In this document: positions 32,329-48,737 of the stretch, piece after piece
How positions within the stretch are numbered: the stretch's first letter is position 1
Layout of the letters: each line of letters opens with the position of its first letter
Assembly: GCA_001603275.1 (NCBI GenBank)
Contig: LUYM01000006.1
Location: 1 to 64,000, forward strand
Length of the DNA: 64,000 nt
Direction: 5' to 3'
Source of the DNA: Actinomycetales bacterium Actino_02
GTDB taxonomy: Bacteria; Actinomycetota; Actinomycetes; Propionibacteriales; Propionibacteriaceae
Program-made: the position numbers and the translations under genes
Notes under the pieces: model-generated
Told to the model about the DNA's origin: nothing
Seen by the model: only the letters and a program-made list of their open reading frames with translations
Database searches by the model: none

Positions 32329-33792
32329 TCACTTCACTCGACGGCCGGACGAGGTCGCGGAAGCATTCTGGTAGCCGGGCCTGGCCAGCCGGATCCGGAC
32401 CGAGATCTTCTTGCCCTTGTCCGCCTTGGTCAGCCGGTAGCTGCTGCGGGTCTGGCCGGTGAGCGGCTTCCCGTTGCGCAACCACTGGTAACTGGTCACC
32501 GCGGCCGTCGGTGACCAGGTGCCGGGCCGCGCCGTCACCGTCTTGCCGACCTTCATGGTGCCGGCCACCGATGGGCTCTTCCTCTTGGTCACCGTCGGCA
32601 GCAGCGACTGCTCCAGCGCGGTGATTGAGACGGTTGTGAACGCGATCTTGTGCCAGTAGGTCTTGCCGCTGCCGTAGCCGTTTTCATAGACCAGGCCGAC
32701 TCGAGAATCGTCCATCTGGACCAAATCCGAGTAATAGGCCGGATCGGTGGATCCGCCGATGGCCAGGCCCTTCTTCCAGGATCGGCCCTGGTCGGAGCTG
32801 ACGAAGATGCGCATCCCCTTGCGCTGGGTGAGTTTCCCGGAGATGTTCGACGGGCTGGACAGCAACAGCAGGTTGCTGGCCCCGGTGAGTTGCAGCAGGC
32901 TGCCGCCGGTGGGGACGGTCTTCACCCCACTCATCGCAGTGAAGCTCGTCGACAGCGACGTCCCGGCGTCGGTGGATCGTGCGCTCACCCGGTTCGCGCC
33001 CGGTGCCGGCGAGCCGTCGCCCTTATCCCGGTAGCTGGCCAGCAGCGACCCATCGGTCAGCTCGGTCACGGTGCCTTCGATCAGCTTCAGCTTGCCCGGC
33101 GAGGCCTGCTCCCAGCCCACGCTCCAGGTCTGGCCGTTGTCGTCGCTGACCAGCGAGCGAGGCACCCGGGTGCCGTCGGAACGGGTGCTGCCCAGCGCCA
33201 ACACGATCCGTCCGGCATGCTCGCCCTGGCTGAGCACCAGGCCGTGGCCGACCCCGGTCATCCCCGGCCAGTGGTTGGTGGCGGTGAACCGTCCCTCGGC
33301 CAGCGGAGTGACCTCCTGGCCGTCGGCACTGATCCACTGCTGATGCAGGTAGGAGTAGGAGCCGCTCGCCGAGCGGGAGTCCTGCGCCTTCACCGTGGTG
33401 ACCAGGAGCACCTTGCCCACCGATGGCACGTACACCGGCACCGGATTGGAGACCCGGGACGAGCCGAAATCGGCGACCACCCGCGGCGTACTCCAGGTAC
33501 AGCCGCCGTTGCTGGAGGTGGTCATGGTGATGTCGAAGTTGCCCTCGTCGTCGTTGTCGGCATTGTCGTTGCGGCGCTCGGCGAAGACGAACAGCCGGCC
33601 ATCCGCGCCCTGCACCATCGACGGCACCCGGTAGCGGACCTTGTCGCTGCTGGTCAGCGGCGTCCAGGTGCATCCGGTCGCCGCGGACGCCACCGTCGGG
33701 CTGAATACGGGCGGCAGGCCGAGGGTGGCCGTGGCGACGGCGAGGGCAGCCGCAAGCTGGAGTCGAAGGACGAATCCGGGGGGCCGGGTCAT
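32329..33792 (-). CDS. Secreted exo-alpha-sialidase with C-terminal Ig-like domain
   Basis: The 487-residue product starts at ATG 33792, which gives a proper signal peptide (about 1-38, ending ASA). An in-frame ATG 54 bases upstream would add an unlikely polar leader. YRVPS at 54-58 is the RIP-type motif with the first active-site Arg (55), followed by the acidic FAERRNDNADND loop. Asp boxes are visible as SSNGGCTW (93-100), SDDNGQTWS and SSDQGRSWK. A C-terminal domain (about 408-487) repeats the GTWSPTAAVTSYQW pattern of bacterial Ig-like adhesive modules. It probably releases terminal sialic or related acids outside the cell. Confidence 0.88.
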   Translation of the reverse strand: MTRPPGFVLRLQLAAALAVATATLGLPPVFSPTVASAATGCTWTPLTSSDKVRYRVPSMVQGADGRLFVFAERRNDNADNDDEGNFDITMTTSSNGGCTWSTPRVVADFGSSRVSNPVPVYVPSVGKVLLVTTVKAQDSRSASGSYSYLHQQWISADGQEVTPLAEGRFTATNHWPGMTGVGHGLVLSQGEHAGRIVLALGSTRSDGTRVPRSLVSDDNGQTWSVGWEQASPGKLKLIEGTVTELTDGSLLASYRDKGDGSPAPGANRVSARSTDAGTSLSTSFTAMSGVKTVPTGGSLLQLTGASNLLLLSSPSNISGKLTQRKGMRIFVSSDQGRSWKKGLAIGGSTDPAYYSDLVQMDDSRVGLVYENGYGSGKTYWHKIAFTTVSITALEQSLLPTVTKRKSPSVAGTMKVGKTVTARPGTWSPTAAVTSYQWLRNGKPLTGQTRSSYRLTKADKGKKISVRIRLARPGYQNASATSSGRRVK

Positions 33793-34021
33793 GATCGCTC
33801 TGCTTCTGTCGGGGGGCTGGCAGGCACTGCGGTGGGAGTGCGTCATGGCGATGGTCGGGGAAACCTGGACGCAGCCCCAGTACAGCATTTCGCGGCCGGT
33901 CGGCGGTACCTGGTGAGGGGCTTTCGTCTCTGCGATCCGGCGCGCCGGTGGGTCTGGTGTGGCGTGGACGCCCTCGGTCCCGGCGGCTGGGCGGTGTTCT
34001 GGCTCCTGCTATCGTCCCCTC

Positions 34022-35293
34022 ATGCTGCAGTCCAGCCTTCTGGATGGTGTCAAGGTCGCCGTGATCGCCGACACCGACAGCCGGTGGAAATGGGTCTTGG
34101 CGACCGCGAAGCAGCTCACCACCACTCCTCCCGATCTCTATCTGCGCGAGACCGCGGCGCGCCCGTCCGAGCGTCAGCTGGTTGAGGCCGGCGCCGATCC
34201 GTCCCGGGTCCGGACGGTGCAGCTCGCCGAGCTTCCCGTCGTCCTGGCTGAGAACCCGTGCGATGTGCTGATCATCGGCCTGCCCGGCTCGGGAGTGCAG
34301 GCCGTGCTGCAGGCGATGGCAGGGCAGTGGACCGAACCGAAGCGGCCGATCCTGGTGTCCGGCTACGTCGGCATCATCTACGAGCGCCTGGTCCAAGGCC
34401 TCTACCACCGGGCCGGCTCGGACGTCATCGTGGCCAACAGCCCGGCCGACGCCCGGGCTTTCACCGGGCTGCTTGCCGCGGCCGGCTTCGACCCGTCCGC
34501 CGTGGTCACCGAGCCGCTGCCGTTCCTCGGTTCGCCCGCTTCGGCGGCCGGAGCCGATGGTGTCGGGGCGCTCACCTTCGCCGCGCAGCCGGACGTCCCG
34601 GCCACCAAGGCCGATCGCAACTACATCGTCACCCGGCTGATCGAGCACGCCCGGCGGCACCCCGAGCAGCCGGTGCTGCTGAAGGTGCGTGGGGTGGCCA
34701 AGGAGCGCCTCACCCACCCCGAGCCGCATCCCTATCAGCGTCTCGTCGAGGCTCGCAATGACGAGCTGCCGGCAAACTTCTCGGTGATCGCCGGGCCGAT
34801 GTCGGACGCCCTGGATCGCTCGGCCGTTCTGATCACCATGTCCAGCACGGCCGCTGTCGAGGCGATCCACCGCGGCTTGCCCACCGGGATCCTGACCGAC
34901 CTGGGCATCCGTGAAGAGATGGGCAACCACTTCTTCGCCGGGTCCGGCTGCTACGTCTCCTTCGACGAACTGGCCGACGGCGCTCGTCCCCTGGCTGACC
35001 CGGACTGGGCCACCGATCATGGCCTGGCCGGGTTGGAGCGAGGGGCGCTGGCGGCCCGGGTCGGCGACCTGCTGGGGAGCGAGCTGCCCGCGCCGCGGCC
35101 CTTCTTCACCGCGCAGCGCAGCGCGGTCTACCGCAAGCGGCTGCTGGCCGAGAACGGGCTGGACGAGGCCGGACGGCCGGTGCCAGTGCGGCACCGCGGC
35201 ATCGGCGGACGCGTGCTGCGCCGGCTGGCGCGCTGGGTCTATCGGAATGGCTACGGGGTGGTTGCCCCGGCCTTGAGGCGACTAGGAGCCTGA
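34022..35293 (+). CDS. Putative glycosyltransferase, DUF6716-like
   Basis: The 423-residue protein starts at ATG 34022, and the frame upstream lacks family character. The opening VAVIADTDSRWKW and the later ITMSSTAAVEAIHRGLPTG, a GT-B-like nucleotide-sugar loop, fit the actinobacterial DUF6716 putative glycosyltransferases. Its TGA shares a base with the ATG of the CMP-nonulosonate synthetase gene (TGATG), so the two are coupled. That pairing suggests it transfers or helps transfer the CMP-activated acid. The family name is given with moderate certainty. Confidence 0.7.
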   Translation: MLQSSLLDGVKVAVIADTDSRWKWVLATAKQLTTTPPDLYLRETAARPSERQLVEAGADPSRVRTVQLAELPVVLAENPCDVLIIGLPGSGVQAVLQAMAGQWTEPKRPILVSGYVGIIYERLVQGLYHRAGSDVIVANSPADARAFTGLLAAAGFDPSAVVTEPLPFLGSPASAAGADGVGALTFAAQPDVPATKADRNYIVTRLIEHARRHPEQPVLLKVRGVAKERLTHPEPHPYQRLVEARNDELPANFSVIAGPMSDALDRSAVLITMSSTAAVEAIHRGLPTGILTDLGIREEMGNHFFAGSGCYVSFDELADGARPLADPDWATDHGLAGLERGALAARVGDLLGSELPAPRPFFTAQRSAVYRKRLLAENGLDEAGRPVPVRHRGIGGRVLRRLARWVYRNGYGVVAPALRRLGA

Positions 35294-36483
35294 TGGGCGA
35301 CGACCTGAATGCGACGTCTCCGCTGGTGGTGGCCGTGATCCCGGCCCGCGGCGGCTCCAAGGGCGTCCCCGGCAAGAACCTGGCCCCGGTGGCCGGAGTG
35401 CCGCTGGTGGTCCGGGCGATCCGGGCCTGCCTGGCCGCCGGACGCGTGAGCGAGGTGGTGGTCTCCACCGACGACGACGGCATCGCCGCCACGGCCGCTC
35501 AGGCTGGAGCCATTGTGGTCCGCCGCCCGGCCGAGCTGGCCAACGACACCGCCTCCAGCGAGGCCGCACTGCGGCACGTCCTGGAGACCCGCTACGCCGA
35601 CCGGCTGCCCGAGGTGCTGTTGTTGGTCCAGTGCACCAGCCCGTTCATCACGGCCGCCGAAGTGGACGAGGTGGTTGCGGCCATCCAGGAGCGGGGCGCC
35701 GACTCGGCGTTCACCGCGGCCGCCTTCCACGGCTTCATCTGGCGCGAGGACGGCTCGGCTTACGGCGTCAATCACGATCACCGCACCCGTCCGCGGCGCC
35801 AGGAGCGTCCGGTGGAGTATCTGGAGACCGGCGCCGCCTACGCCATGCGCACGGAAGGCTTCCTGGCCGCGGGCCATCGCTTCTTCGGGACGGTGCAGGC
35901 CGTGCCCACCGATCCGGCGCGGGTTCTCGAGATCGACGAGCCGGACGATCTGGCCCGGGCCCGGGCCATCGCCGGCCTGATCGAGACCGAACGTCCGATC
36001 CCGCCGGCCGGGGCGGTGCAGGCTGTCGTCCTCGACTTCGACGGAACCCAGACCGACGATCGGGTCTGGATCACCGCGGACGGCACCGAGCAGGTCGCCG
36101 TCCATCGTGGCGACGGGATGGGCATCGCCGCCTTGCGGGATGCCGGGCTGCCGATCCTGTTCCTGTCCACCGAGGTGAACTCCGTGGTCACGGCCCGGGC
36201 CGCCAAGCTGCGCGTCGAGTGCGTCCACGCCACCCAGGACAAGGTGTCCGAGCTGCGCGCCTGGTGTGGACGGATCGGCGTCGACCTGGCCCAGGTGGCC
36301 TATGTGGGCAACGATCTGAACGATCTGGGCTGCCTACAGGCGGTCGGCTGGCCGGTGGCGGTGGCCAACGCCCACCCGGCGGTGAAGCAGGCGGCCGCCT
36401 GGACGACTACGGCAGCCGGTGGGCACGGGGCGGTTCGCGAGGTCGCCGCCTGGCTGCTCGGCGACGACCTCGCTGGTCGCTAG
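35293..36483 (+). CDS. CMP-nonulosonate (acylneuraminate) cytidylyltransferase fused to HAD phosphatase
   Basis: The 396-residue protein has two domains. Residues about 10-232 form a NeuA-like cytidylyltransferase with VIPARGGSKGVPGKN (15-29) and VQCTSPF (112-118). Residues about 243-396 form a KdsC-like HAD phosphatase with the catalytic DFDGTQTD at 248-255 and VGNDLNDL near the end. The first would activate a nine-carbon acid with CTP. The second could remove the phosphate from the preceding 9-phosphate, so two pathway steps sit in one chain. The stop overlaps the convergent CPBP gene in a shared CTAG. No NeuB or NeuC gene is near. Confidence 0.88.
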   Translation: MGDDLNATSPLVVAVIPARGGSKGVPGKNLAPVAGVPLVVRAIRACLAAGRVSEVVVSTDDDGIAATAAQAGAIVVRRPAELANDTASSEAALRHVLETRYADRLPEVLLLVQCTSPFITAAEVDEVVAAIQERGADSAFTAAAFHGFIWREDGSAYGVNHDHRTRPRRQERPVEYLETGAAYAMRTEGFLAAGHRFFGTVQAVPTDPARVLEIDEPDDLARARAIAGLIETERPIPPAGAVQAVVLDFDGTQTDDRVWITADGTEQVAVHRGDGMGIAALRDAGLPILFLSTEVNSVVTARAAKLRVECVHATQDKVSELRAWCGRIGVDLAQVAYVGNDLNDLGCLQAVGWPVAVANAHPAVKQAAAWTTTAAGGHGAVREVAAWLLGDDLAGR

Positions 36484-37433
36484 ACGGTCGCTGCCTGAGT
36501 GGCGGCCGGGACCGGTGGGAACCGCCAGGCGATGATCGCCAGGATGGTCAGCACGGCAACCATCAGCCAGCCCATCGGCAGTGAGATGAACAGGTTGCCG
36601 CCGATGATCAGCAGAGCGAAGATGCCGATCGTCCCGTTGTAGGCGCCGTGCAAGATGGCCGGGGCCAATACCGACTTCGCCCGTGCCCGGACCCAGGTCA
36701 GCAGGAAGCTGAGCGGGACCGTCCAGGCCACCATCATCGGCACTCCCAGGGCCCACTGGCTTCCGTAGTTGTGACCCATGCCGATGATGATCGGCGCGTG
36801 CCACAGACCCCAGAGCACCCCGATCACCAGGTTCGATCGCAGGACACCGAGCGGACGAAGCTGCTCGGCCAGCACGCCTCGCCAGCCGTACTCCTCACCG
36901 AAGGCGAACAACCCGTTGATGGTCAGCCCGGCGATGAGGCCCTGGATCAGCCCGGGAATGGCCACCATGGCCGCCGACGGGAGCCAGGTGCTTGCGGTCA
37001 CACCCGGAGTGATCTCCATCAGTCGCTGCCGCAGCTCGGCATCACTGGTGACCAGATGACCGGCCCCGGGCAGACCCGTGGCCCCGGCGGCCCAGGCCAC
37101 GGCGAAGCCGAGGGCCAGGATGATCACCATGGTCGAGATGGCATAGCCGGCACTGCGTCCGTAGGCCCGAAAGAAGCCGCGCCGTAACTCGGCAATCAGG
37201 TAGTGGCGGCCATTGAGCCGCTCAACGATCAGTCCTGCCACGATGGGCAACGGCATGTAGAGCACCGCCGTGACCAGCTGAGTGAGCATCTGCAGTGACG
37301 GTGGCAGGAGTCGACTGAGGCCGACCAGGCCGAGGCCGACGACGACGGCGCCGCCGAAGGCGATTGCGTAGTACTGGGCAACACGCTTCCACGCGACGCT
37401 CCGCCAACGGGAGGTCGCAACTTCCACACTCAT
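36480..37433 (-). CDS. CPBP-family intramembrane metalloprotease
   Basis: The 317-residue membrane protein has about eight helices. The CPBP (Abi) motifs are present in order: FGEEYGWRG (near residue 175, with the paired Glu), GLWHAP and ILHGAYN with the zinc-ligand His residues. These proteases act on prenylated or bacteriocin-related peptides in some bacteria, while most are uncharacterised. It overlaps the DUF5808 gene by four bases and is the last gene of the PadR operon. Confidence 0.88.
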   Translation of the reverse strand: MSVEVATSRWRSVAWKRVAQYYAIAFGGAVVVGLGLVGLSRLLPPSLQMLTQLVTAVLYMPLPIVAGLIVERLNGRHYLIAELRRGFFRAYGRSAGYAISTMVIILALGFAVAWAAGATGLPGAGHLVTSDAELRQRLMEITPGVTASTWLPSAAMVAIPGLIQGLIAGLTINGLFAFGEEYGWRGVLAEQLRPLGVLRSNLVIGVLWGLWHAPIIIGMGHNYGSQWALGVPMMVAWTVPLSFLLTWVRARAKSVLAPAILHGAYNGTIGIFALLIIGGNLFISLPMGWLMVAVLTILAIIAWRFPPVPAATQAATV

Positions 37434-38290
37434 TTCTTTCCTCCGAGATCACGTGCTTGTTCTGCGGTGCGTCCGGCCCTGGCAAGGCCGAACAGCACTG
37501 CTCCGGCCGGCAGCCAGGCGGCGGCCAGCACCAGGGGGCCGGCCCAGGGGCGGGCCTTCCCATCGGTTGCCGCGGTTCGCCACACGGTGAGCCAGGCAGA
37601 GATTGAGGCCGCCGTGGTGGCGGCGGCAATGGCGCCGGCGGTGCGCGGACCGCCCTTGCCGGAGGCCACGAGTCCCCCGGCCCAGGCGGTCGGGACGGCG
37701 GCGATGGCGATGTCGAGGGCTGCGGCTGCCGCCTTCGGGATCGGATCCACGCCGCGACCGGCGGCGTCCATCTGGTTCGGCAGCCGGTCGGGCAACCCAG
37801 GTCCGCGGACGACGTAGTGGGCGACCACCGCGGCGCTCAGCGCGGCCGGCACCAGGGCGGCGGTCCGGAAGGCCGGGGCCGGGGTGCTCTCGAACGGCTC
37901 GTCCTCGGCGTCCGGCTCGATCAGGCCGAGCTTCACGGCCACCGCACCGAAGTTCAGCGTCCAGCCCAGGCCGAAGACCCGGGGGACGAGCAGGCGCTCA
38001 TCACGTGGGTTCCACCAGGCCCGGGCCATCTTCTCCCCGGTCGGCGGGGTCAGATCGAGCGGGACGCCGAAGCGTCCCGGTTCTTCGGCTTCAGCCTCAC
38101 CGAGAGTGGCGGCCACGGCCGAGACGTCCGCCGGGCTGGCCGAGGCGTCCAGGTGATCGGCGAAGTGGGCGGCCAGTGCCTCGCGCACGTCGGCGCGATC
38201 TTCCGCGGCAACGGGCGCGGTCAGGGCGTCGAGCTGGGCGTTCAGCGCAGCCAGTGTCTTGGGCTGCAGTTCATCCAATGACGTGATCAC
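37430..38290 (-). CDS. DUF5808-containing membrane protein
   Basis: The 286-residue protein has a soluble N-terminal part (about 1-80) resembling the HAAS/DUF1700-type region. Next comes WNPRDERLLVPRVFGLGWTL (about 92-111), a signature of DUF5808. Several membrane helices follow (about 142-160, 185-205, 212-235 and 245-265). It overlaps the PadR gene upstream and the CPBP gene downstream by four bases each. Three-gene units of PadR, a HAAS/DUF membrane protein and a further membrane protein recur in Gram-positive bacteria and are thought to sense envelope state. The role here is inference. Confidence 0.75.
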   Translation of the reverse strand: MITSLDELQPKTLAALNAQLDALTAPVAAEDRADVREALAAHFADHLDASASPADVSAVAATLGEAEAEEPGRFGVPLDLTPPTGEKMARAWWNPRDERLLVPRVFGLGWTLNFGAVAVKLGLIEPDAEDEPFESTPAPAFRTAALVPAALSAAVVAHYVVRGPGLPDRLPNQMDAAGRGVDPIPKAAAAALDIAIAAVPTAWAGGLVASGKGGPRTAGAIAAATTAASISAWLTVWRTAATDGKARPWAGPLVLAAAWLPAGAVLFGLARAGRTAEQARDLGGKK

Positions 38291-38628
38291 TTCTCGACCT
38301 CCACAATCGTGCGAATGGCGGCGGCCACATTGGCGAAGGTGGCCGCCATGGCAGCCAGGGCGTCCTGGCCGGCCGGAGTCAGTGCGTAGTACTTGCGCGG
38401 CGGCCCGACCGGCGACTCCTGCCAGCTCGAGCTGATCAGGCCGGCCCGGGCCAGCCGGGCGACGAGCGGATAGACGGTGCCGGCGGTGATGGCCAACTCG
38501 GGTCGGTCCGCCAGATCGTCCACCAGTTGGGAGCCGTAGCGCGGCTCGCGGGCGAGCAGGCCGAGGACGGCCAACTCGACGACACCCTTGCGCAGCTGAG
38601 AGCCCCAGCCCTCCTGTTCCTTGTCCAT
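38287..38628 (-). CDS. PadR-family transcriptional regulator
   Basis: The 113-residue product has the PadR winged helix, with LAVLGLLAREPRYGSQLVDDL and GTVYPLVARLARAGLI, then a short C-terminal helix. ATG 38628 is chosen because a good promoter puts the transcript start on or beside it (leaderless). In-frame ATGs at 38637 and 38664 would lie inside the -10 element or the -35. It is first in a three-gene operon with DUF5808 and CPBP genes and presumably represses it. Confidence 0.85.
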   Translation of the reverse strand: MDKEQEGWGSQLRKGVVELAVLGLLAREPRYGSQLVDDLADRPELAITAGTVYPLVARLARAGLISSSWQESPVGPPRKYYALTPAGQDALAAMAATFANVAAAIRTIVEVEK

Positions 38629-38635
38629 GTCCAAC

Positions 38636-38676
38636 ATGGTATGACCAGCTACCTTGTGACGCAAGCTAGCTGGTCA
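38636..38676 (-). promoter_or_regulatory. padR promoter overlapped by a 10-bp inverted repeat
   Basis: On the minus strand TTGCGT (38659-38664) and TACCAT (38636-38641) are spaced by 17 bases, and seven bases separate the -10 from ATG 38628. TGACCAGCTA (38642-38651) and TAGCTGGTCA (38667-38676) form a perfect dyad spanning the promoter, as for an autoregulatory operator. Confidence 0.65.
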
Positions 38677-38770
38677 CGCCAGGTTCCGCGGCGGAGAGTT
38701 CACCCAGATCACCCCGGATGTTCAGCCGATGCATCGGTGCCCGATGCGGCGGTCGATACGCTCGACAGCG

Positions 38771-41161
38771 ATGTCAGTACAGCGACGGGACCACGATTCG
38801 GAGGGCCTCGGCCTCCCGAAACCTTCGGGCGGTCCGACCATCTTTCTGGCGACCAGAGAACACGGCTTGGCCATGTGCTTGGCTATCGCCGACCGGCTGC
38901 AGATCCCGGTGGCCGATCGGATCCTGGTCGCAGCCGACACCAGCCACAGCTACGAGGTGCAGCCGTCGTTCCCACCCGAGCAGCGGCTGGGCTACCTGGA
39001 CGAGTTCGCCGAGGTCGTCGACTGGAATGACTTGATCTGGCCGGCCCGAGCCCAAGGCTGGACCTGCCTTCCGGGCACCGCCGAGGCCAAGCTCTTCGCC
39101 GAGGCCGTGGTGCCGTCCGGACGAGAGGTCGCGCGGCTCGTCCTGGAGTCGATCCAGGTGCCGCCGGCCGCGGCGCTGGCCGCACTGTTCCCGTCCGCCG
39201 AGCTCCAGCTGTACTCCGACGGGCTGATGACCTACGGCGGGCGTCCGCTGGACGTGAGCCTGACCGGCCGGGTCACCGCGATGCACTACCGCGACCTGCT
39301 GGACGGGATCAGCCCGCGGCTGCTCGACCACGCCGAGGGCATCACCGACCAGCCGTACCCGATCGAGGCCGTCGAAGCCTTCACCATGACCGGCCAATCG
39401 GCCGCCGCCGAGGAGCAGGTCAGCGGGCCGACCGCCGTCGTCCTCCTGCAGTACCTGGCGCATCTTGGCCTGCTGAGCAGGGCGCGGGAACTGGCCGTGA
39501 ACCGGCGGATGGTGGCGGCAGCGCTCGCCTCGGGTGCACAGCGGGTTCTGGTCAAGGCGCACCCGGCCCACGCCGCGGACCTGGACGAGCTGCTGGCCGA
39601 TCCACGGGTGCGGCCGTTCGTCGGCAACCGCTCGCTGGAGTCCTGGCTGCTCAGCCTCAGTAGCGAGCAGCGCGCCCAGGTGACGGTGTTCAGCGCGTTC
39701 TCCACGGGGCTGGTCGGCGCTCGCCGGCTCGGCGCCGCAGCGGTGGCCGTCGGCACCCGCGAGCTGCTCAAGCGGCTGCCCGAGACCGACGGAAACCGGA
39801 TCCCGGTCGCGATCTGCGATGCGCTGTTGCCCACGATCGGACTGACCGGTGAACTGACCCCCAGACCGGCCCGGTTCAGCACCGCCGAACTCGAAATGCT
39901 GCTGGACCTGCTCAGCTTCGCCAAGGATCCGGCGGGACACTGGCGGTTCCGGGCCCCTGTGGCCGCGCACCTGTACGGACTGTCCGAACAGCGTCGCGCC
40001 GAGTTCACCCGCTATCTGCCGGACGCCGACCTGCGCCGGCTCGGACTGTTCCGGGCCGACGAGGAGCCGACCAGCAGCCCCGCTCCGGCCCCGATGCCGC
40101 CGGCGCCGGATCGTCCGATCGTGCTGCAGCCGGACGAACTCGCGCTCAGCGTCGTGATTCCCGCCCACAACACCGGCAACTACTTCGCCGGGCTGAAGGC
40201 CAGCATCCTCAGCAATCGACGGGACGACCTCGAGTGGCTGATCGTTGATGACGGCTCGACCGACGGCAGCAGCGAACTGCTGGACGGCCTGGCTGCGGAG
40301 TTCTCCGAGGTGCGCGTCCTCCGTCACGCCAGCGCTCAGGGTCCGTCCGCGGCACGCAACAGCGGGATCCGGCAGGCGAAGGGCCGCTACATCGCCTTGA
40401 TGGACGCCGACGACTGGGTCGCCGAGGGCTATTTCGCGAAGCTGGCCGGTCAGGCGCTGTGGCACGGTGCCGACCTGGTGCGGGTGGGCTACTTTGAGGT
40501 CACCGGAGGCAAGACCGCGGTGCGGCGGCAGCCGGTGCCGCGCCAGGACGTCCCGCTGCATCCGCGGGAGCTGCTGATGCCGGTCGACCAGACCGCGGCC
40601 GTGGATCTGCCGCAGCCCTGGTTGAACGTGGTGCGTCGTGACTTCCTGGAAGCCAACGAGCTCTACTTCGACGAGGAGCTGCACACCGCCGAGGACCGCG
40701 AATGGACCTGGCGGGCCTTTCTGGCGGCCGGCTCGGTGGTGAACTCGAGCACCGTCGGCTACTTCTGGCGTCGCGAGGTCAGCGGCTCGCTGACCCAGAT
40801 CGGTGATGCCCGTCAGCTGCACTACCTGGCGGCCTACCAGAAGGTCGCCGCCCTGGTGAGCGACGGGCCGGAGCGGCACTATCTGCCGAAGGTGCACCGG
40901 TCGATGATGGCCATCGGGCTGAGTCACCTGGAGCGTTCCGAGCGACTGCAGCCTCGGCTACGACTGGCTGCGGTGCGCGACCTGCGCCGGGCCGTGCGGG
41001 CCATCAGTGAACCGGATCTGATCCTGGCCAGCCAGGGCCTCACCTTCCGCAGGGAGCGGCTGCTCCGGCTGCTGCGCCAAGGCATGCCCGCGCCATTGAT
41101 GTTGCTGATGGCCGGTGGTCGATCCACCTTGCGCGGGCTGAGCCGAGCGCTGCTGCACTGA
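38771..41161 (+). CDS. Bifunctional polysialyltransferase-like / GT2 glycosyltransferase
   Basis: The product is about 796 residues from ATG 38771. The start is not fixed, since no strong ribosome binding site is seen. The N-terminal half (about 20-410) resembles the bacterial alpha-2,8-polysialyltransferase family, with LVKAHPAH and later FSAFSTGLVGARRLGA, the usual HP and Ser/Thr-Ser motifs for CMP-sugar binding. After a Pro/Ala linker (about 420-440), a GT2 domain begins LSVVIPAHNTGNYF, with IVDDGSTDGS and MDADDW for the nucleotide sugar and metal. One chain could thus add two different sugars to a repeating surface polymer. No membrane helix is visible. Confidence 0.78.
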   Translation: MSVQRRDHDSEGLGLPKPSGGPTIFLATREHGLAMCLAIADRLQIPVADRILVAADTSHSYEVQPSFPPEQRLGYLDEFAEVVDWNDLIWPARAQGWTCLPGTAEAKLFAEAVVPSGREVARLVLESIQVPPAAALAALFPSAELQLYSDGLMTYGGRPLDVSLTGRVTAMHYRDLLDGISPRLLDHAEGITDQPYPIEAVEAFTMTGQSAAAEEQVSGPTAVVLLQYLAHLGLLSRARELAVNRRMVAAALASGAQRVLVKAHPAHAADLDELLADPRVRPFVGNRSLESWLLSLSSEQRAQVTVFSAFSTGLVGARRLGAAAVAVGTRELLKRLPETDGNRIPVAICDALLPTIGLTGELTPRPARFSTAELEMLLDLLSFAKDPAGHWRFRAPVAAHLYGLSEQRRAEFTRYLPDADLRRLGLFRADEEPTSSPAPAPMPPAPDRPIVLQPDELALSVVIPAHNTGNYFAGLKASILSNRRDDLEWLIVDDGSTDGSSELLDGLAAEFSEVRVLRHASAQGPSAARNSGIRQAKGRYIALMDADDWVAEGYFAKLAGQALWHGADLVRVGYFEVTGGKTAVRRQPVPRQDVPLHPRELLMPVDQTAAVDLPQPWLNVVRRDFLEANELYFDEELHTAEDREWTWRAFLAAGSVVNSSTVGYFWRREVSGSLTQIGDARQLHYLAAYQKVAALVSDGPERHYLPKVHRSMMAIGLSHLERSERLQPRLRLAAVRDLRRAVRAISEPDLILASQGLTFRRERLLRLLRQGMPAPLMLLMAGGRSTLRGLSRALLH

Positions 41162-46583: not shown

Positions 46584-48737
46584 ATGAAGCGCTCGTCACT
46601 TGCCGCCGTCTTGTTGTTGAGCTTGGGCTTGCCGATGCTGCCGGCTCTGCCCGCGGCAGCCGAACCCGCCGAGGAGCCGGTGGTCATCCAGTCGCTGGCT
46701 GGCCTCAACCAGGCCGTCGACATCAAGGGCGGTTCGATCGCCGACCGGGCCGCGGCCCAGAGCTACACGGCCAACGCCAGCACCGCCCAGGAGTTCACCT
46801 TCACCGATTGCGATGGCTCGGGTTGGTGCACGGTGACCAACACCAAGTCGACCAAGTGTCTGGAGGTCAAGGGCGCGAGCACGGCCCGTGGCGCGATCGT
46901 CCAGCAGAACACCTGCAACACCACGACGGCACAGAAGTGGAAGCGGGTGAGCCTGGGCGGCGGGTTGTACAACATCCAGAGCGCAATCGGCACCGACCGC
47001 TGGCTGGACGTCCGCGGCGGCAAGGCCAAGAACGGCGTCGTGCTTCAGGTGTGGAGCCACAACACCTCCAAGGCGCAGCAGTTCCGGCTGACCGCGGCCC
47101 CGAACTGGGGGCTCGGCCTCAGCCAGGTGGACGAGACCACCTCGGTGAAGGTGAGCCTGACCGATCTGGAGTCGTTGGCCGGGGTGTGGGCCACGGATGT
47201 CTCGCTGACCGCGAAGCTGAAGTACGGCTCGGCGACCACCCGGACCGTCACCGTCAAGAAGGCGCTGTCGACGGTCGACCCCGATGGCACCTTCACCTTT
47301 GACGTCGGTGACTACGGCAAGTGGACGATCAGCGCCACGTTCCGCAACGGCAAGAACACCGTGAAGACGGTCGCCGCCGCCACGGTTCCGGTCACGTCCA
47401 GCCAGTACATCATCGCTCCGCTGTCCGGGACGATGCCGGTGACGATGCTGACCACCTCGATGTGGGGCAGTGGCTCGATTCGCGGCACCGGCAACGCCAT
47501 CCCGGTGATCGCTCAGCTGGCCCGGGCCAATCAGTGGGACTGGTCGCACCTGCCCGCCGGCATTCACGCGGTGCCCTACCTGACCAAGACGCAGTACTCG
47601 TCGCCGGTCAGCGGCTCGGCCCTCAACTCCGGGCTGGCTCCGCTGAAGGCCTACATCAAGGATCTGCGGGCGCTCAACCCGGACTCGGTCTTCCACCTCT
47701 ACGTGAACGACTACCACGTGCAGATGGTCCAGTCGCTGCTCTACGCCAACAAGATCCCGGCCGACAACTACACGATCAACCTGCTGTCCGACGGCGGCTT
47801 CTCCTACCAGAAGTTCGCGGCCACCTATGCCAGTGACCCCACCGCCACCCAGACCCGGCTGGTCTCGGAATGGCAGGCGGCCAAGGACTACGCCTACACC
47901 AACGGCAAGGTGCTCAGCACGCTCAGTGTGACCGCAGCGCAGAACTACATCTGGGCTGCAGTGAAGAGCGAGTCGGCGGCGAAGTGGTGGCTGACGCGTC
48001 CGTCGCTGCTCACCTCGGCCGGCGACAGCAACGCGTTCGCTAGCGCGGTCGCCAGCGACTCCAAGGTGACTACCTTGTCGATCGGCGCACGGCTGACCGC
48101 CATCAAGGCTGCCGGCGACACCGATCTGGGCCAGTTCAAGACGCTGTACCGGTTCAATGACGCCTACTTCGCCAAGTCCACTGCGGCGAACCGGGACGTG
48201 ATGATGTTCCTCGGGACGCGGTTGGAGAACGAGGCTTCCTTCACCGACTACGCCGGATTCACCATGAAGTACTACGGGACGGCATTCGACTACTACTACA
48301 AGGGCCACCCGGCCACGCCGACCATGTTTTACCCGAGCAAGGCCACGCAGTTGAAGACGCTCAAGATCACCGACATCGACTCCTCGGTCGCCGCCGAACT
48401 GATCTTGTTCTTCAACCCGGAGATCTACATGTCGGGCTATCCGTCGTCCACCTACCTGTCGGTGAGCGACCCGAACATGGCCAAGGGCCTGTTCGGCCTG
48501 ACCAAGGCGCAGGGCCTGGCCTCGGTCAGCCCGAGCTACTCGATCATGAAGTGGTTCATGGCGCCGAAGACGTCCTACAGCGGGGCGATCGCCGCGCTGC
48601 CGGGTGACTTCGTCGTGGAGTTCTCCGATGCGGTGGTGGCTGACAAGGGCTACAACATCGCGATGTGGAGCTCGTCGGCCAAGACCATCACCTACTACAA
48701 GCTGGTCGACGGCGCCTACCAGAAGGTTGCCGCCTAG
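46584..48737 (+). CDS. Secreted ricin-lectin protein with GT80-like sialyltransferase domain
   Basis: The product is 717 residues from ATG 46584, with GTG 46566 as an alternative. A signal peptide (about 1-26) ends ALPAAA. Residues about 33-170 are a ricin-type beta-trefoil with QQNTCNTTTAQKW and QVWSHNTSKAQQF repeats. Residues about 185-270 look Ig-like. The C-terminal half aligns with GT80 sialyltransferases: FHLYVNDYHVQMVQSLL then LLSDGGFSY (Asp403, the catalytic base position), YYKGHP (His575), AAELILF (Glu605) and GYPSSTYLSV (Ser621-622 for the CMP phosphate). Known GT80 enzymes transfer sialic acid from CMP to galactosides. Activity is inferred from motif conservation, and an exported enzyme needing CMP-sugar is unusual. 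Confidence 0.75.
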   Translation: MKRSSLAAVLLLSLGLPMLPALPAAAEPAEEPVVIQSLAGLNQAVDIKGGSIADRAAAQSYTANASTAQEFTFTDCDGSGWCTVTNTKSTKCLEVKGASTARGAIVQQNTCNTTTAQKWKRVSLGGGLYNIQSAIGTDRWLDVRGGKAKNGVVLQVWSHNTSKAQQFRLTAAPNWGLGLSQVDETTSVKVSLTDLESLAGVWATDVSLTAKLKYGSATTRTVTVKKALSTVDPDGTFTFDVGDYGKWTISATFRNGKNTVKTVAAATVPVTSSQYIIAPLSGTMPVTMLTTSMWGSGSIRGTGNAIPVIAQLARANQWDWSHLPAGIHAVPYLTKTQYSSPVSGSALNSGLAPLKAYIKDLRALNPDSVFHLYVNDYHVQMVQSLLYANKIPADNYTINLLSDGGFSYQKFAATYASDPTATQTRLVSEWQAAKDYAYTNGKVLSTLSVTAAQNYIWAAVKSESAAKWWLTRPSLLTSAGDSNAFASAVASDSKVTTLSIGARLTAIKAAGDTDLGQFKTLYRFNDAYFAKSTAANRDVMMFLGTRLENEASFTDYAGFTMKYYGTAFDYYYKGHPATPTMFYPSKATQLKTLKITDIDSSVAAELILFFNPEIYMSGYPSSTYLSVSDPNMAKGLFGLTKAQGLASVSPSYSIMKWFMAPKTSYSGAIAALPGDFVVEFSDAVVADKGYNIAMWSSSAKTITYYKLVDGAYQKVAA

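What the first reader, a model, noticed from the sequence alone, without database searches (positions are those of the whole stretch)
46584..48737. Exported ricin-lectin/GT80 sialyltransferase-like protein in an actinobacterium
The C-terminal half carries, in order, the GT80 landmarks known from Pasteurella and Photobacterium sialyltransferases. They are the SDGG catalytic-base position, YYKGHP, a Glu about 30 residues later and the SS pair of GYPSSTYLS. What is unusual is a signal peptide plus a ricin-type lectin and an Ig-like domain in front, in a Gram-positive host. An extracellular enzyme that needs CMP-sialate raises the question of donor supply: leaked CMP-sugar, another donor, or a non-catalytic lectin role.
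Basis: partly seen in the sequence, partly recalled or inferred. Interest (0 to 1): 0.75.

Follow-up and report, generated by a model that had tools for sequence, protein, structure and literature searches.

The report
Exported sialyltransferase-like surface enzyme family
The gene encodes an exported protein that joins a sugar-binding lectin to a domain shaped like known sialyltransferases, and it belongs to an undescribed family of surface proteins in Gram-positive bacteria that seem to keep this normally nucleotide-sugar-dependent enzyme outside the cell.

Summary
It has a signal peptide, a ricin lectin (Pfam E 8e-20), an Ig-like domain and a 447-aa GT-B domain. The domain misses the GT80 Pfam profile and every NCBIfam model. 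However, its AlphaFold model (pLDDT 93.5) has GT80 sialyltransferases as its first 17 PDB hits (E 2e-10 to 3e-8; next 4.5e-4), and a profile alignment puts the landmarks on their GT80 counterparts. Forty-two related loci were found in Actinomycetota and Bacillota. Most look exported; eight of ten long members scanned carry cell-wall- or glycan-binding modules. D403, H575 and E605 are invariant in 41 of 41 aligned sequences. Yet only 4 of 39 other carriers have a strong NeuB, so self-made CMP-sialate cannot be the general answer. Best reading: a tethered extracellular GT80-superfamily enzyme with an intact CMP site. Donor and acceptor are unknown. A CMP-cofactor trans-sialidase reaction would remove the donor problem but is untested.

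The parts
46584..46661 (+). Sec-type signal peptide, aa 1-26 (cleavage after AAA, by eye)
   Evidence: sequence; no signal-peptide predictor was available
46686..47093 (+). Ricin-type beta-trefoil lectin, aa 35-170
   Evidence: PF14200 E 8.1e-20, PF00652 E 3.6e-10; solved relatives 3vsf, 3wmy and others
47094..47393 (+). Ig-like beta domain, about aa 171-270
   Evidence: AlphaFold model strands; 4r83 matches over Ig+GT, 520 columns
47394..48734 (+). GT80-like GT-B domain, aa 271-717
   Evidence: model pLDDT 93.5; Foldseek hits 1-17 all GT80; hhalign
47790..47792 (+). D403, counterpart of catalytic base D141 of PmST1
   Evidence: 41 of 41 rows; aligned with the second D of YDDG
48300..48308 (+). 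K573-G574-H575, HP motif (cytosine and phosphate contacts in GT38/GT80)
   Evidence: roles from PMC5517516 and PMC4202792 passages
48396..48398 (+). E605, counterpart of E338 of PmST1 / ribose-binding E323 of MhPST
48444..48449 (+). S621-S622, counterpart of S355-S356 (phosphate)
32329..33888 (-). Exported sialidase-like protein (BNR_2), context
   Evidence: PF13088 E 3.6e-23; export by eye
33959..35293 (+). DUF6716 putative glycosyltransferase, context
   Evidence: PF20471 E 1e-101
35293..36483 (+). NeuA-like CMP-nonulosonate synthetase fused to a HAD hydrolase, context
   Evidence: PF02348 E 3.1e-23 and PF08282 E 4e-12; only PF02348 hit in the genome
38729..41161 (+). Polysialyltransferase-like (PF07388) plus GT2 fusion, context
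   Evidence: PF07388 E 3.4e-9, PF00535 E 2.6e-29

Best explanation
It is an exported enzyme of the GT80 superfamily (inverting GT-B sialyltransferase fold) that works on extracellular glycans while docked to a glycan or cell wall by accessory modules; here an N-terminal ricin lectin does the docking. Shown here: the ORF, lectin, predicted Ig+GT-B fold, alignment and conservation of the base, HP, Glu and Ser-Ser positions, and the accessory cell-wall or lectin modules of many long relatives. Inferred: secretion (signal peptide by eye and a loose heuristic), catalysis, binding of CMP, and a nonulosonate as the sugar moved. Proposed mechanism: D403 deprotonates an acceptor hydroxyl; K573/H575/E605/S621-622 hold CMP and stabilise it as leaving group. 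In this host, CMP-nonulosonate from its own NeuB/NeuA could reach the outside by lysis or leakage. For the family as a whole, where most hosts examined lack strong NeuA and NeuB matches, the more economical mode is CMP used as a recycled cofactor: reverse transfer from an existing sialoside to give bound CMP-Sia, then transfer to another acceptor or to water.
For: Fold: PDB hits 1-17 of the GT-only model are all GT80, E 1.8e-10 to 2.7e-8, the next 4.5e-4; hits 1-12 of the Ig+GT model are also GT80. Sequence: hhalign E 4e-4 with all landmarks aligned, score 38.2 against at most 21.9 in 30 shuffles. Conservation across 41 sequences. Export and tethering: heuristic positive in 42 of 46 family rows against 130 of 308 neighbouring ORFs. 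Of ten long members chosen for a Pfam scan, eight carry ricin, ChW, SLH or choline-binding modules and the other two Big_2 domains. Of ten neighbouring proteins picked by eye, seven carry ChW repeats, five of them with GH25, YkuD, NlpC/P60 or C39 domains (Collinsella and Slackia loci). Own genome: NeuA at 35293 and NeuB at C6:601243. Known GT80 enzymes show trans-sialidase and sialidase activity, mainly through reverse sialylation (PMC10795189, passages).
Against: No Pfam GT80 hit for this protein. TM-scores are moderate (0.47-0.59), identity 14-17%, hhalign probability only 30-34%. The motif is (S/T)-D-G rather than D/E-D-G. The serine after DG, which joins the CMP-phosphate network in PmST1 (S143), is Gly405 here, though S or T in 36 of 41 rows. 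H112 of PmST1 has no conserved counterpart: H575 is the only His found in 30 or more of 41 rows. Tethering is not universal: 11 of the 46 rows are short (556-637 aa) and leave room only for an N-terminal signal or anchor, the Ig-like region and the GT domain. The sialic-acid cluster is separated from this gene by other genes and NeuB does not co-occur with the family. No donor or acceptor has been shown.
Confidence: 0.5

Rival explanations
1. The enzyme is active and cytidine-nucleotide dependent, but moves something other than a sialic acid (another CMP- or CDP-linked group, or a cell-wall polymer unit), acting on the producer's own surface polymers.
For: Nucleotide-side residues are kept, while H112, named as important for PmST1 activity, has no conserved counterpart. 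35 of 39 carriers examined lack a strong NeuB and 34 of 39 a strong NeuA. Several relatives lie in surface-polymer loci with LicD-, TagD-, RmlB/C- or GtrA/B-like genes (read by eye) or a TagF-like gene (PF04464).
Against: No known extracellular supply of such donors either; no structure in this family with a bound sugar; the nearest solved folds are all sialyltransferases. Several carriers have only housekeeping-like genes nearby (by eye).
Confidence: 0.25
2. The domain has lost catalysis and serves as a glycan- or nucleotide-binding module of a surface adhesin.
For: Outside the cell with no obvious donor; in this and many long members fused to lectins or cell-wall binding modules; Gly at the S143 position in this protein.
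Against: The catalytic-base Asp, HP motif and Glu are invariant and the Ser pair mostly kept across 41 sequences whose other 40 rows are 27-53% identical to the query; a pseudoenzyme would be expected to lose the base first.
Confidence: 0.15
3. It is an exported sialyltransferase serving this host's own nonulosonate pathway, finishing surface glycans made by the neighbouring cluster.
For: Sialidase, DUF6716, NeuA-HAD and polyST-GT2 lie 5-14 kb upstream; the arrangement is conserved in G136, where NeuB follows NeuA.
Against: Five ORFs lie between the cluster and this gene (GDPD and M20 by Pfam; a DUF885-like, an alpha/beta-hydrolase-like and a small membrane-protein-like ORF by eye). NeuB is absent from same-genus carriers G161 and G163 (98 and 96% complete); in the 30 genomes of the genus NeuB occurs in 20, and this family in 5 genomes, all of the genus. 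CMP-sialate is made in the cytoplasm (recalled).
Confidence: 0.1

Closest known systems
GT80 sialyltransferases (PmST1/PM0188; Photobacterium Pd2,6ST and Psp2,6ST; PF11477)
   Same: GT-B fold; base Asp, HP motif, Glu and Ser-Ser aligned in order; Ig-like domain in front as in the Photobacterium enzyme 4r83
   Different: Not recognised by the GT80 profile; (S/T)DG instead of D/E-D-G; no conserved H112 counterpart; signal peptide plus, in many members, ricin, ChW, SLH or choline-binding modules; Gram-positive hosts
GT38 polysialyltransferases (PF07388, MhPST 5wc6)
   Same: Same CMP-site logic (K-x-HP, Glu, S-S/T); weak sub-threshold profile hits in 12 of 41 members, best E 2.1e-4
   Different: Structure match far weaker than GT80 (E 1.3e-3 against 1.8e-10); membrane-associated on the cytoplasmic side (PMC5517516 passages)
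Exported sialidases and trans-sialidases (BNR fold)
   Same: Extracellular action on sialoglycans; trans-sialidase is one proposed outcome here
   Different: Unrelated fold; no nucleotide needed (both recalled)
Actinobacterial true GT80 genes (L006, L007)
   Same: Same class of bacteria; PF11477 E 1.4e-29 and 9.3e-28
   Different: No signal peptide or lectin seen by eye; neighbouring ORFs look like cytoplasmic glycosyltransferases by eye

Membership tests
GT80 (PF11477) | Pfam profile above its cut-off | tested here: not met
   No hit for P0001 at E<=10; 3 of 41 members at E<=0.1, best 0.0057
GT80 (PF11477) | GT-B fold closest to GT80 structures | tested here: met
   PDB hits 1-17 all GT80, TM 0.47-0.59
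GT80 (PF11477) | D141, H311, E338, S355, S356 counterparts present in order | tested here: met
   hhalign alignment; conservation
GT80 (PF11477) | D/E-D/E-G motif | tested here: not met
   Position 402 is S in 33 and T in 8 of 41, before invariant D403-G404
GT80 (PF11477) | H112 counterpart | tested here: not met
   H575 is the only His column with 30 or more of 41 rows
GT80 (PF11477) | Residues meet in one active-site cleft | not testable with these tools
   Model coordinates are not returned; pdb_via library unavailable
GT80 (PF11477) | Sialyltransferase activity with CMP-sialate | not testable with these tools
   Needs purified enzyme
Ricin-type lectin (PF14200/PF00652) | Profile above cut-off | tested here: met
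   71.7 bits against 25.6 and 40.5 against 29
GT38 polysialyltransferase (PF07388) | Profile above cut-off | tested here: not met
   No hit for P0001; the two hits among ten members scanned singly have 21.3 and 21.4 bits against 23.3, and the E of the 21.4-bit hit equals the best E of the 41; hhalign of A3 with a poor 3-sequence alignment A5 gave nothing

The most novel reading that the evidence does not exclude
A widespread family of extracellular, often cell-wall- or glycan-tethered GT-B enzymes in Gram-positive bacteria that use CMP as a recycled cofactor, not CMP-sugar as a consumed donor: they take a nonulosonate off one glycan as bound CMP-NulO and pass it to another acceptor. This would be a nucleotide-dependent trans-glycosidase working outside the cell.
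Probability: 0.18. Interest if true: 0.85.

Novelty: new variant of a known kind. Interest (0 to 1): 0.6.

Why it matters
Glycosyltransferases that use nucleotide sugars are normally kept where the donor is made. Here a family with an apparently intact CMP site looks secreted, and often fixed to the surface, in Gram-positive bacteria, including gut and oral genera (Collinsella, Actinomyces, Sellimonas; habitats recalled), in hosts that mostly lack strong matches to the enzymes that make CMP-sialate. Either an extracellular supply of CMP-sugar is overlooked, or GT80-like enzymes naturally run a CMP-cofactor trans-sialidase reaction so far treated as a side activity of purified enzymes. No Pfam or NCBIfam model recognised the domain above its cut-off, so annotation pipelines built on them would miss it.

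Tried and rejected
Chance motif hypothesis: rejected by fold, family conservation and shuffle control.

GT80 membership by profile: rejected. DUF5075, Prefoldin and similar Pfam hits at E about 0.002-0.1 were treated as chance.

The single-sequence genome-contig scan found nothing; the 5-row alignment found 42 loci. Plasmids, phages and viral contigs: no relatives. The viral fold library had no match at E<=0.001. Profile search of PDB sequences with A2 gave one unrelated match at E 0.92 and with A3 gave none. In the Ig+GT fold search the next hits after the GT80 block are polysaccharide deacetylases at E 1.2e-6 to 1.1e-5 with query TM 0.15 or less (ranks 13-15), which I read as matches of the Ig-like part only.

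Co-occurrence with NeuB as support for a CMP-sialate donor: looked for and not found. 22 of 39 carriers pass the PF03102 cut-off, but only 4 at E<1e-70 over the whole or nearly whole model; I read the other 18 (at most 45.8 bits, model positions about 52-239) as DAHP-synthase relatives, which is inference. For PF02348, 27 of 39 match (25 over cut-off) and 5 do so at E<1e-15; I read the rest as GlmU/IspD-like, also inference. The 39 genomes left out L027, L033, L039 and L045 of the 42 loci and added L002.

The signal-peptide heuristic picks the start codon partly by hydrophobicity, so it is biased. The control rate was 130 of 308; that control lacked the Shine-Dalgarno term and includes spurious antisense ORFs. 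Of the family rows, window and duplicate rows L001, L008, L003, L004 and L005 were dropped before the count of 46; L009/L028 and L010/L052 appear to be duplicates and were kept. The four failures are L031 and L009 (cut by the locus end), L039 (frame broken) and L035 (no clear start).

A3 and A6 hold 41 rows: the window plus 40 stretches from 39 of the 42 loci. L026, L033 and L039 were left out (close copies or broken frame); L048 gave two.

Papers: no description of this family was seen in the listings of searches of the open-access PMC library; subscription literature was not searched. PMC5517516, PMC4202792 and PMC10795189 were read as passages only; PMC12797295 was searched for six residue names without result; other papers were seen only as listings.

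Full report
Observation. The ORF at 46584-48737 (+) encodes 717 aa. Reading from the N-terminus it has a signal peptide (aa 1-26, by eye), a ricin-type lectin (aa 35-170; PF14200 E 8.1e-20, PF00652 E 3.6e-10), an Ig-like domain (about aa 171-270) and a 447-aa C-terminal domain. The host is an actinobacterium.

Family. In the window's taxonomic family 5 of 198 genomes carry the C-terminal domain, all in the own genus and including the window's own genome. A phylum-wide sample gave 3 of 396, the own genome included. A scan of one genome per species with a 5-row alignment gave 42 loci, a lower bound because the scan needs one of two short patterns. By record title they lie in Actinomycetes (Actinomyces, Trueperella, Propionibacteriaceae), Coriobacteriia (Collinsella, Senegalimassilia, Slackia, Thermophilibacter) and Bacillota (Sellimonas, Drancourtella, Anaerofustis, several Clostridia MAGs). 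In the class of G816, probably Coriobacteriia (inference), 20 of 396 genomes are positive. No relatives were found in the phage, plasmid or viral-contig collections.

Fold. A 41-row alignment gave a confident AlphaFold model of Ig+GT (pLDDT 92.8, pTM 0.89) and of the GT domain alone (93.5, 0.88). Foldseek against the PDB puts GT80 sialyltransferases in ranks 1-12 for Ig+GT, with the P. damselae enzyme first at E 1.8e-13 over 520 columns; the next hit, at E 1.2e-6 and TM 0.15, is a polysaccharide deacetylase. For the GT domain alone GT80 fills ranks 1-17, E 1.8e-10 to 2.7e-8, with the first non-GT80 at 4.5e-4 and the polysialyltransferase 5wc6 at 1.3e-3. TM-scores are moderate (0.47-0.59), with rmsd 6-7 A and identity 14-17%, so this is a distant relationship.

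Sequence link to GT80. The GT80 profile does not recognise the protein; 3 of 41 family members match it weakly (best E 0.0057) and 12 of 41 match the polysialyltransferase profile weakly (best E 2.1e-4, 21.4 bits against a cut-off of 23.3). No NCBIfam model fits the domain: none for the window's, and only stray hits at E 0.02-0.09 among the others. A profile-profile alignment with four GT80 sequences (two actinobacterial, two Photobacterium from the PDB) scores 38.2, E 4e-4, probability 34%. The best of 30 column-shuffled controls reaches 21.9 and the reversed control 15.4. In it D403 falls on the second Asp of YDDG, K573-G-H575-P on KGHP, E605 on the ElL glutamate and S621-S622 on the Ser pair. 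According to passages read in PMC4202792 these positions in PM0188 (D141, H311, E338, S355, S356) are important for catalysis. PMC5517516 (passages) assigns cytosine, ribose and phosphate contacts to the matching residues of the polysialyltransferase.

Conservation. D403, H575 and E605 are each 41 of 41; S622 is S36/T5; S621 is S29/T7/N4/D1; D376, R472 and D597 are also 41 of 41. H575 and E605 were partly used to find the loci, but both hold in the rows lacking the relevant search pattern (16 of 16 and 9 of 9). Against full equivalence: the first acid of the D/E-D-G motif is S or T; the residue after DG is Gly in this protein where 36 of 41 rows have S or T; and no counterpart of H112 is conserved.

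Location. In 42 of 46 family rows a loose heuristic finds an N-terminal hydrophobic export signal or anchor, against 130 of 308 neighbouring ORFs. Stronger evidence is modular. Among ten long members chosen for scanning, three carry ricin lectins, two ChW repeats, one SLH, two choline-binding repeats and two Big_2 domains. Not every member has such modules: 11 of the 46 rows are only 556-637 aa long. Of ten neighbouring proteins picked by eye, seven carry ChW repeats, and in five of these the ChW repeats come with a GH25, YkuD, NlpC/P60 or C39 domain (Collinsella and Slackia loci). So in those loci the GT-like domain occupies a slot otherwise filled by extracellular cell-wall enzymes. Other carriers have ordinary neighbours (by eye).

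Donor supply. The window holds, 5-14 kb upstream, an exported sialidase-like protein, DUF6716, a NeuA-like synthetase fused to a HAD hydrolase, and a polysialyltransferase-like/GT2 fusion. NeuB lies at C6:601243 beside a second DUF6716 gene. The order is conserved in G136, where NeuB sits next to NeuA, but five ORFs separate the cluster from this gene in the window. Among 39 carrier genomes 22 pass the NeuB profile cut-off, but only 4 at E<1e-70; the rest are probably DAHP synthases (inference). For the NeuA profile 27 match, 25 over the cut-off, and 5 do so at E<1e-15. Within the genus NeuB occurs in 20 of 30 genomes but not in carriers G161 and G163. Some carriers are incomplete MAGs, but records not titled as MAGs, such as Collinsella aerofaciens (L026), Trueperella pyogenes (L017) and Actinomyces (L016, L020, L037), also lack a strong NeuB.

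Interpretation. The best-supported reading is an exported, often tethered enzyme of the GT80 superfamily with an intact CMP site. The sugar moved and the acceptor are inferred. Purified GT80 enzymes run sialidase and trans-sialidase reactions mainly by reverse sialylation (PMC10795189 passages). If this family does so naturally, CMP is a recycled cofactor and the donor problem disappears; this is a hypothesis. Membership in GT80 proper is not claimed, since the profile and two motif tests were not met.

Noticed in passing
window 32329-41161: A sialic-acid gene cluster: exported sialidase-like protein, DUF6716, NeuA-HAD fusion, Rce1-like CAAX protease and a polysialyltransferase-like/GT2 fusion; conserved in G136.
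   Followed up: partly
window 35293-36483: CMP-nonulosonate synthetase fused to a HAD hydrolase; the only PF02348 hit in the genome.
   Followed up: no
L060 5611-9084 (G000 C6 about 599.6-603.1 kb): DUF6716, NeuB and a 347-aa protein without Pfam hit lie together; the last looked sialyltransferase-like by eye only.
   Followed up: partly
L006, L007: True GT80 genes (PF11477 E 1.4e-29 and 9.3e-28) in 2 of 394 genomes sampled from the class, without a signal peptide visible by eye.
   Followed up: partly
L044 1240-6932: A family member in a Clostridia MAG is flanked by two inverted copies (84% over 706 nt) of a cytidylate-kinase-like gene.
   Followed up: partly
L048 5586-6698 and 7515-8627: Two tandem family copies in an Eubacteriales MAG, in a locus with nucleotide-sugar genes recognised by eye.
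   Followed up: no
L058 and L059 against window 32329-52881: The family protein is 74% identical between G000 and G136 while several neighbours (GDPD, DUF885-like, PEPCK, OYE-like) are 90-95%; the sialidase (59%) and M20 peptidase (55%) also diverge fast.
   Followed up: no
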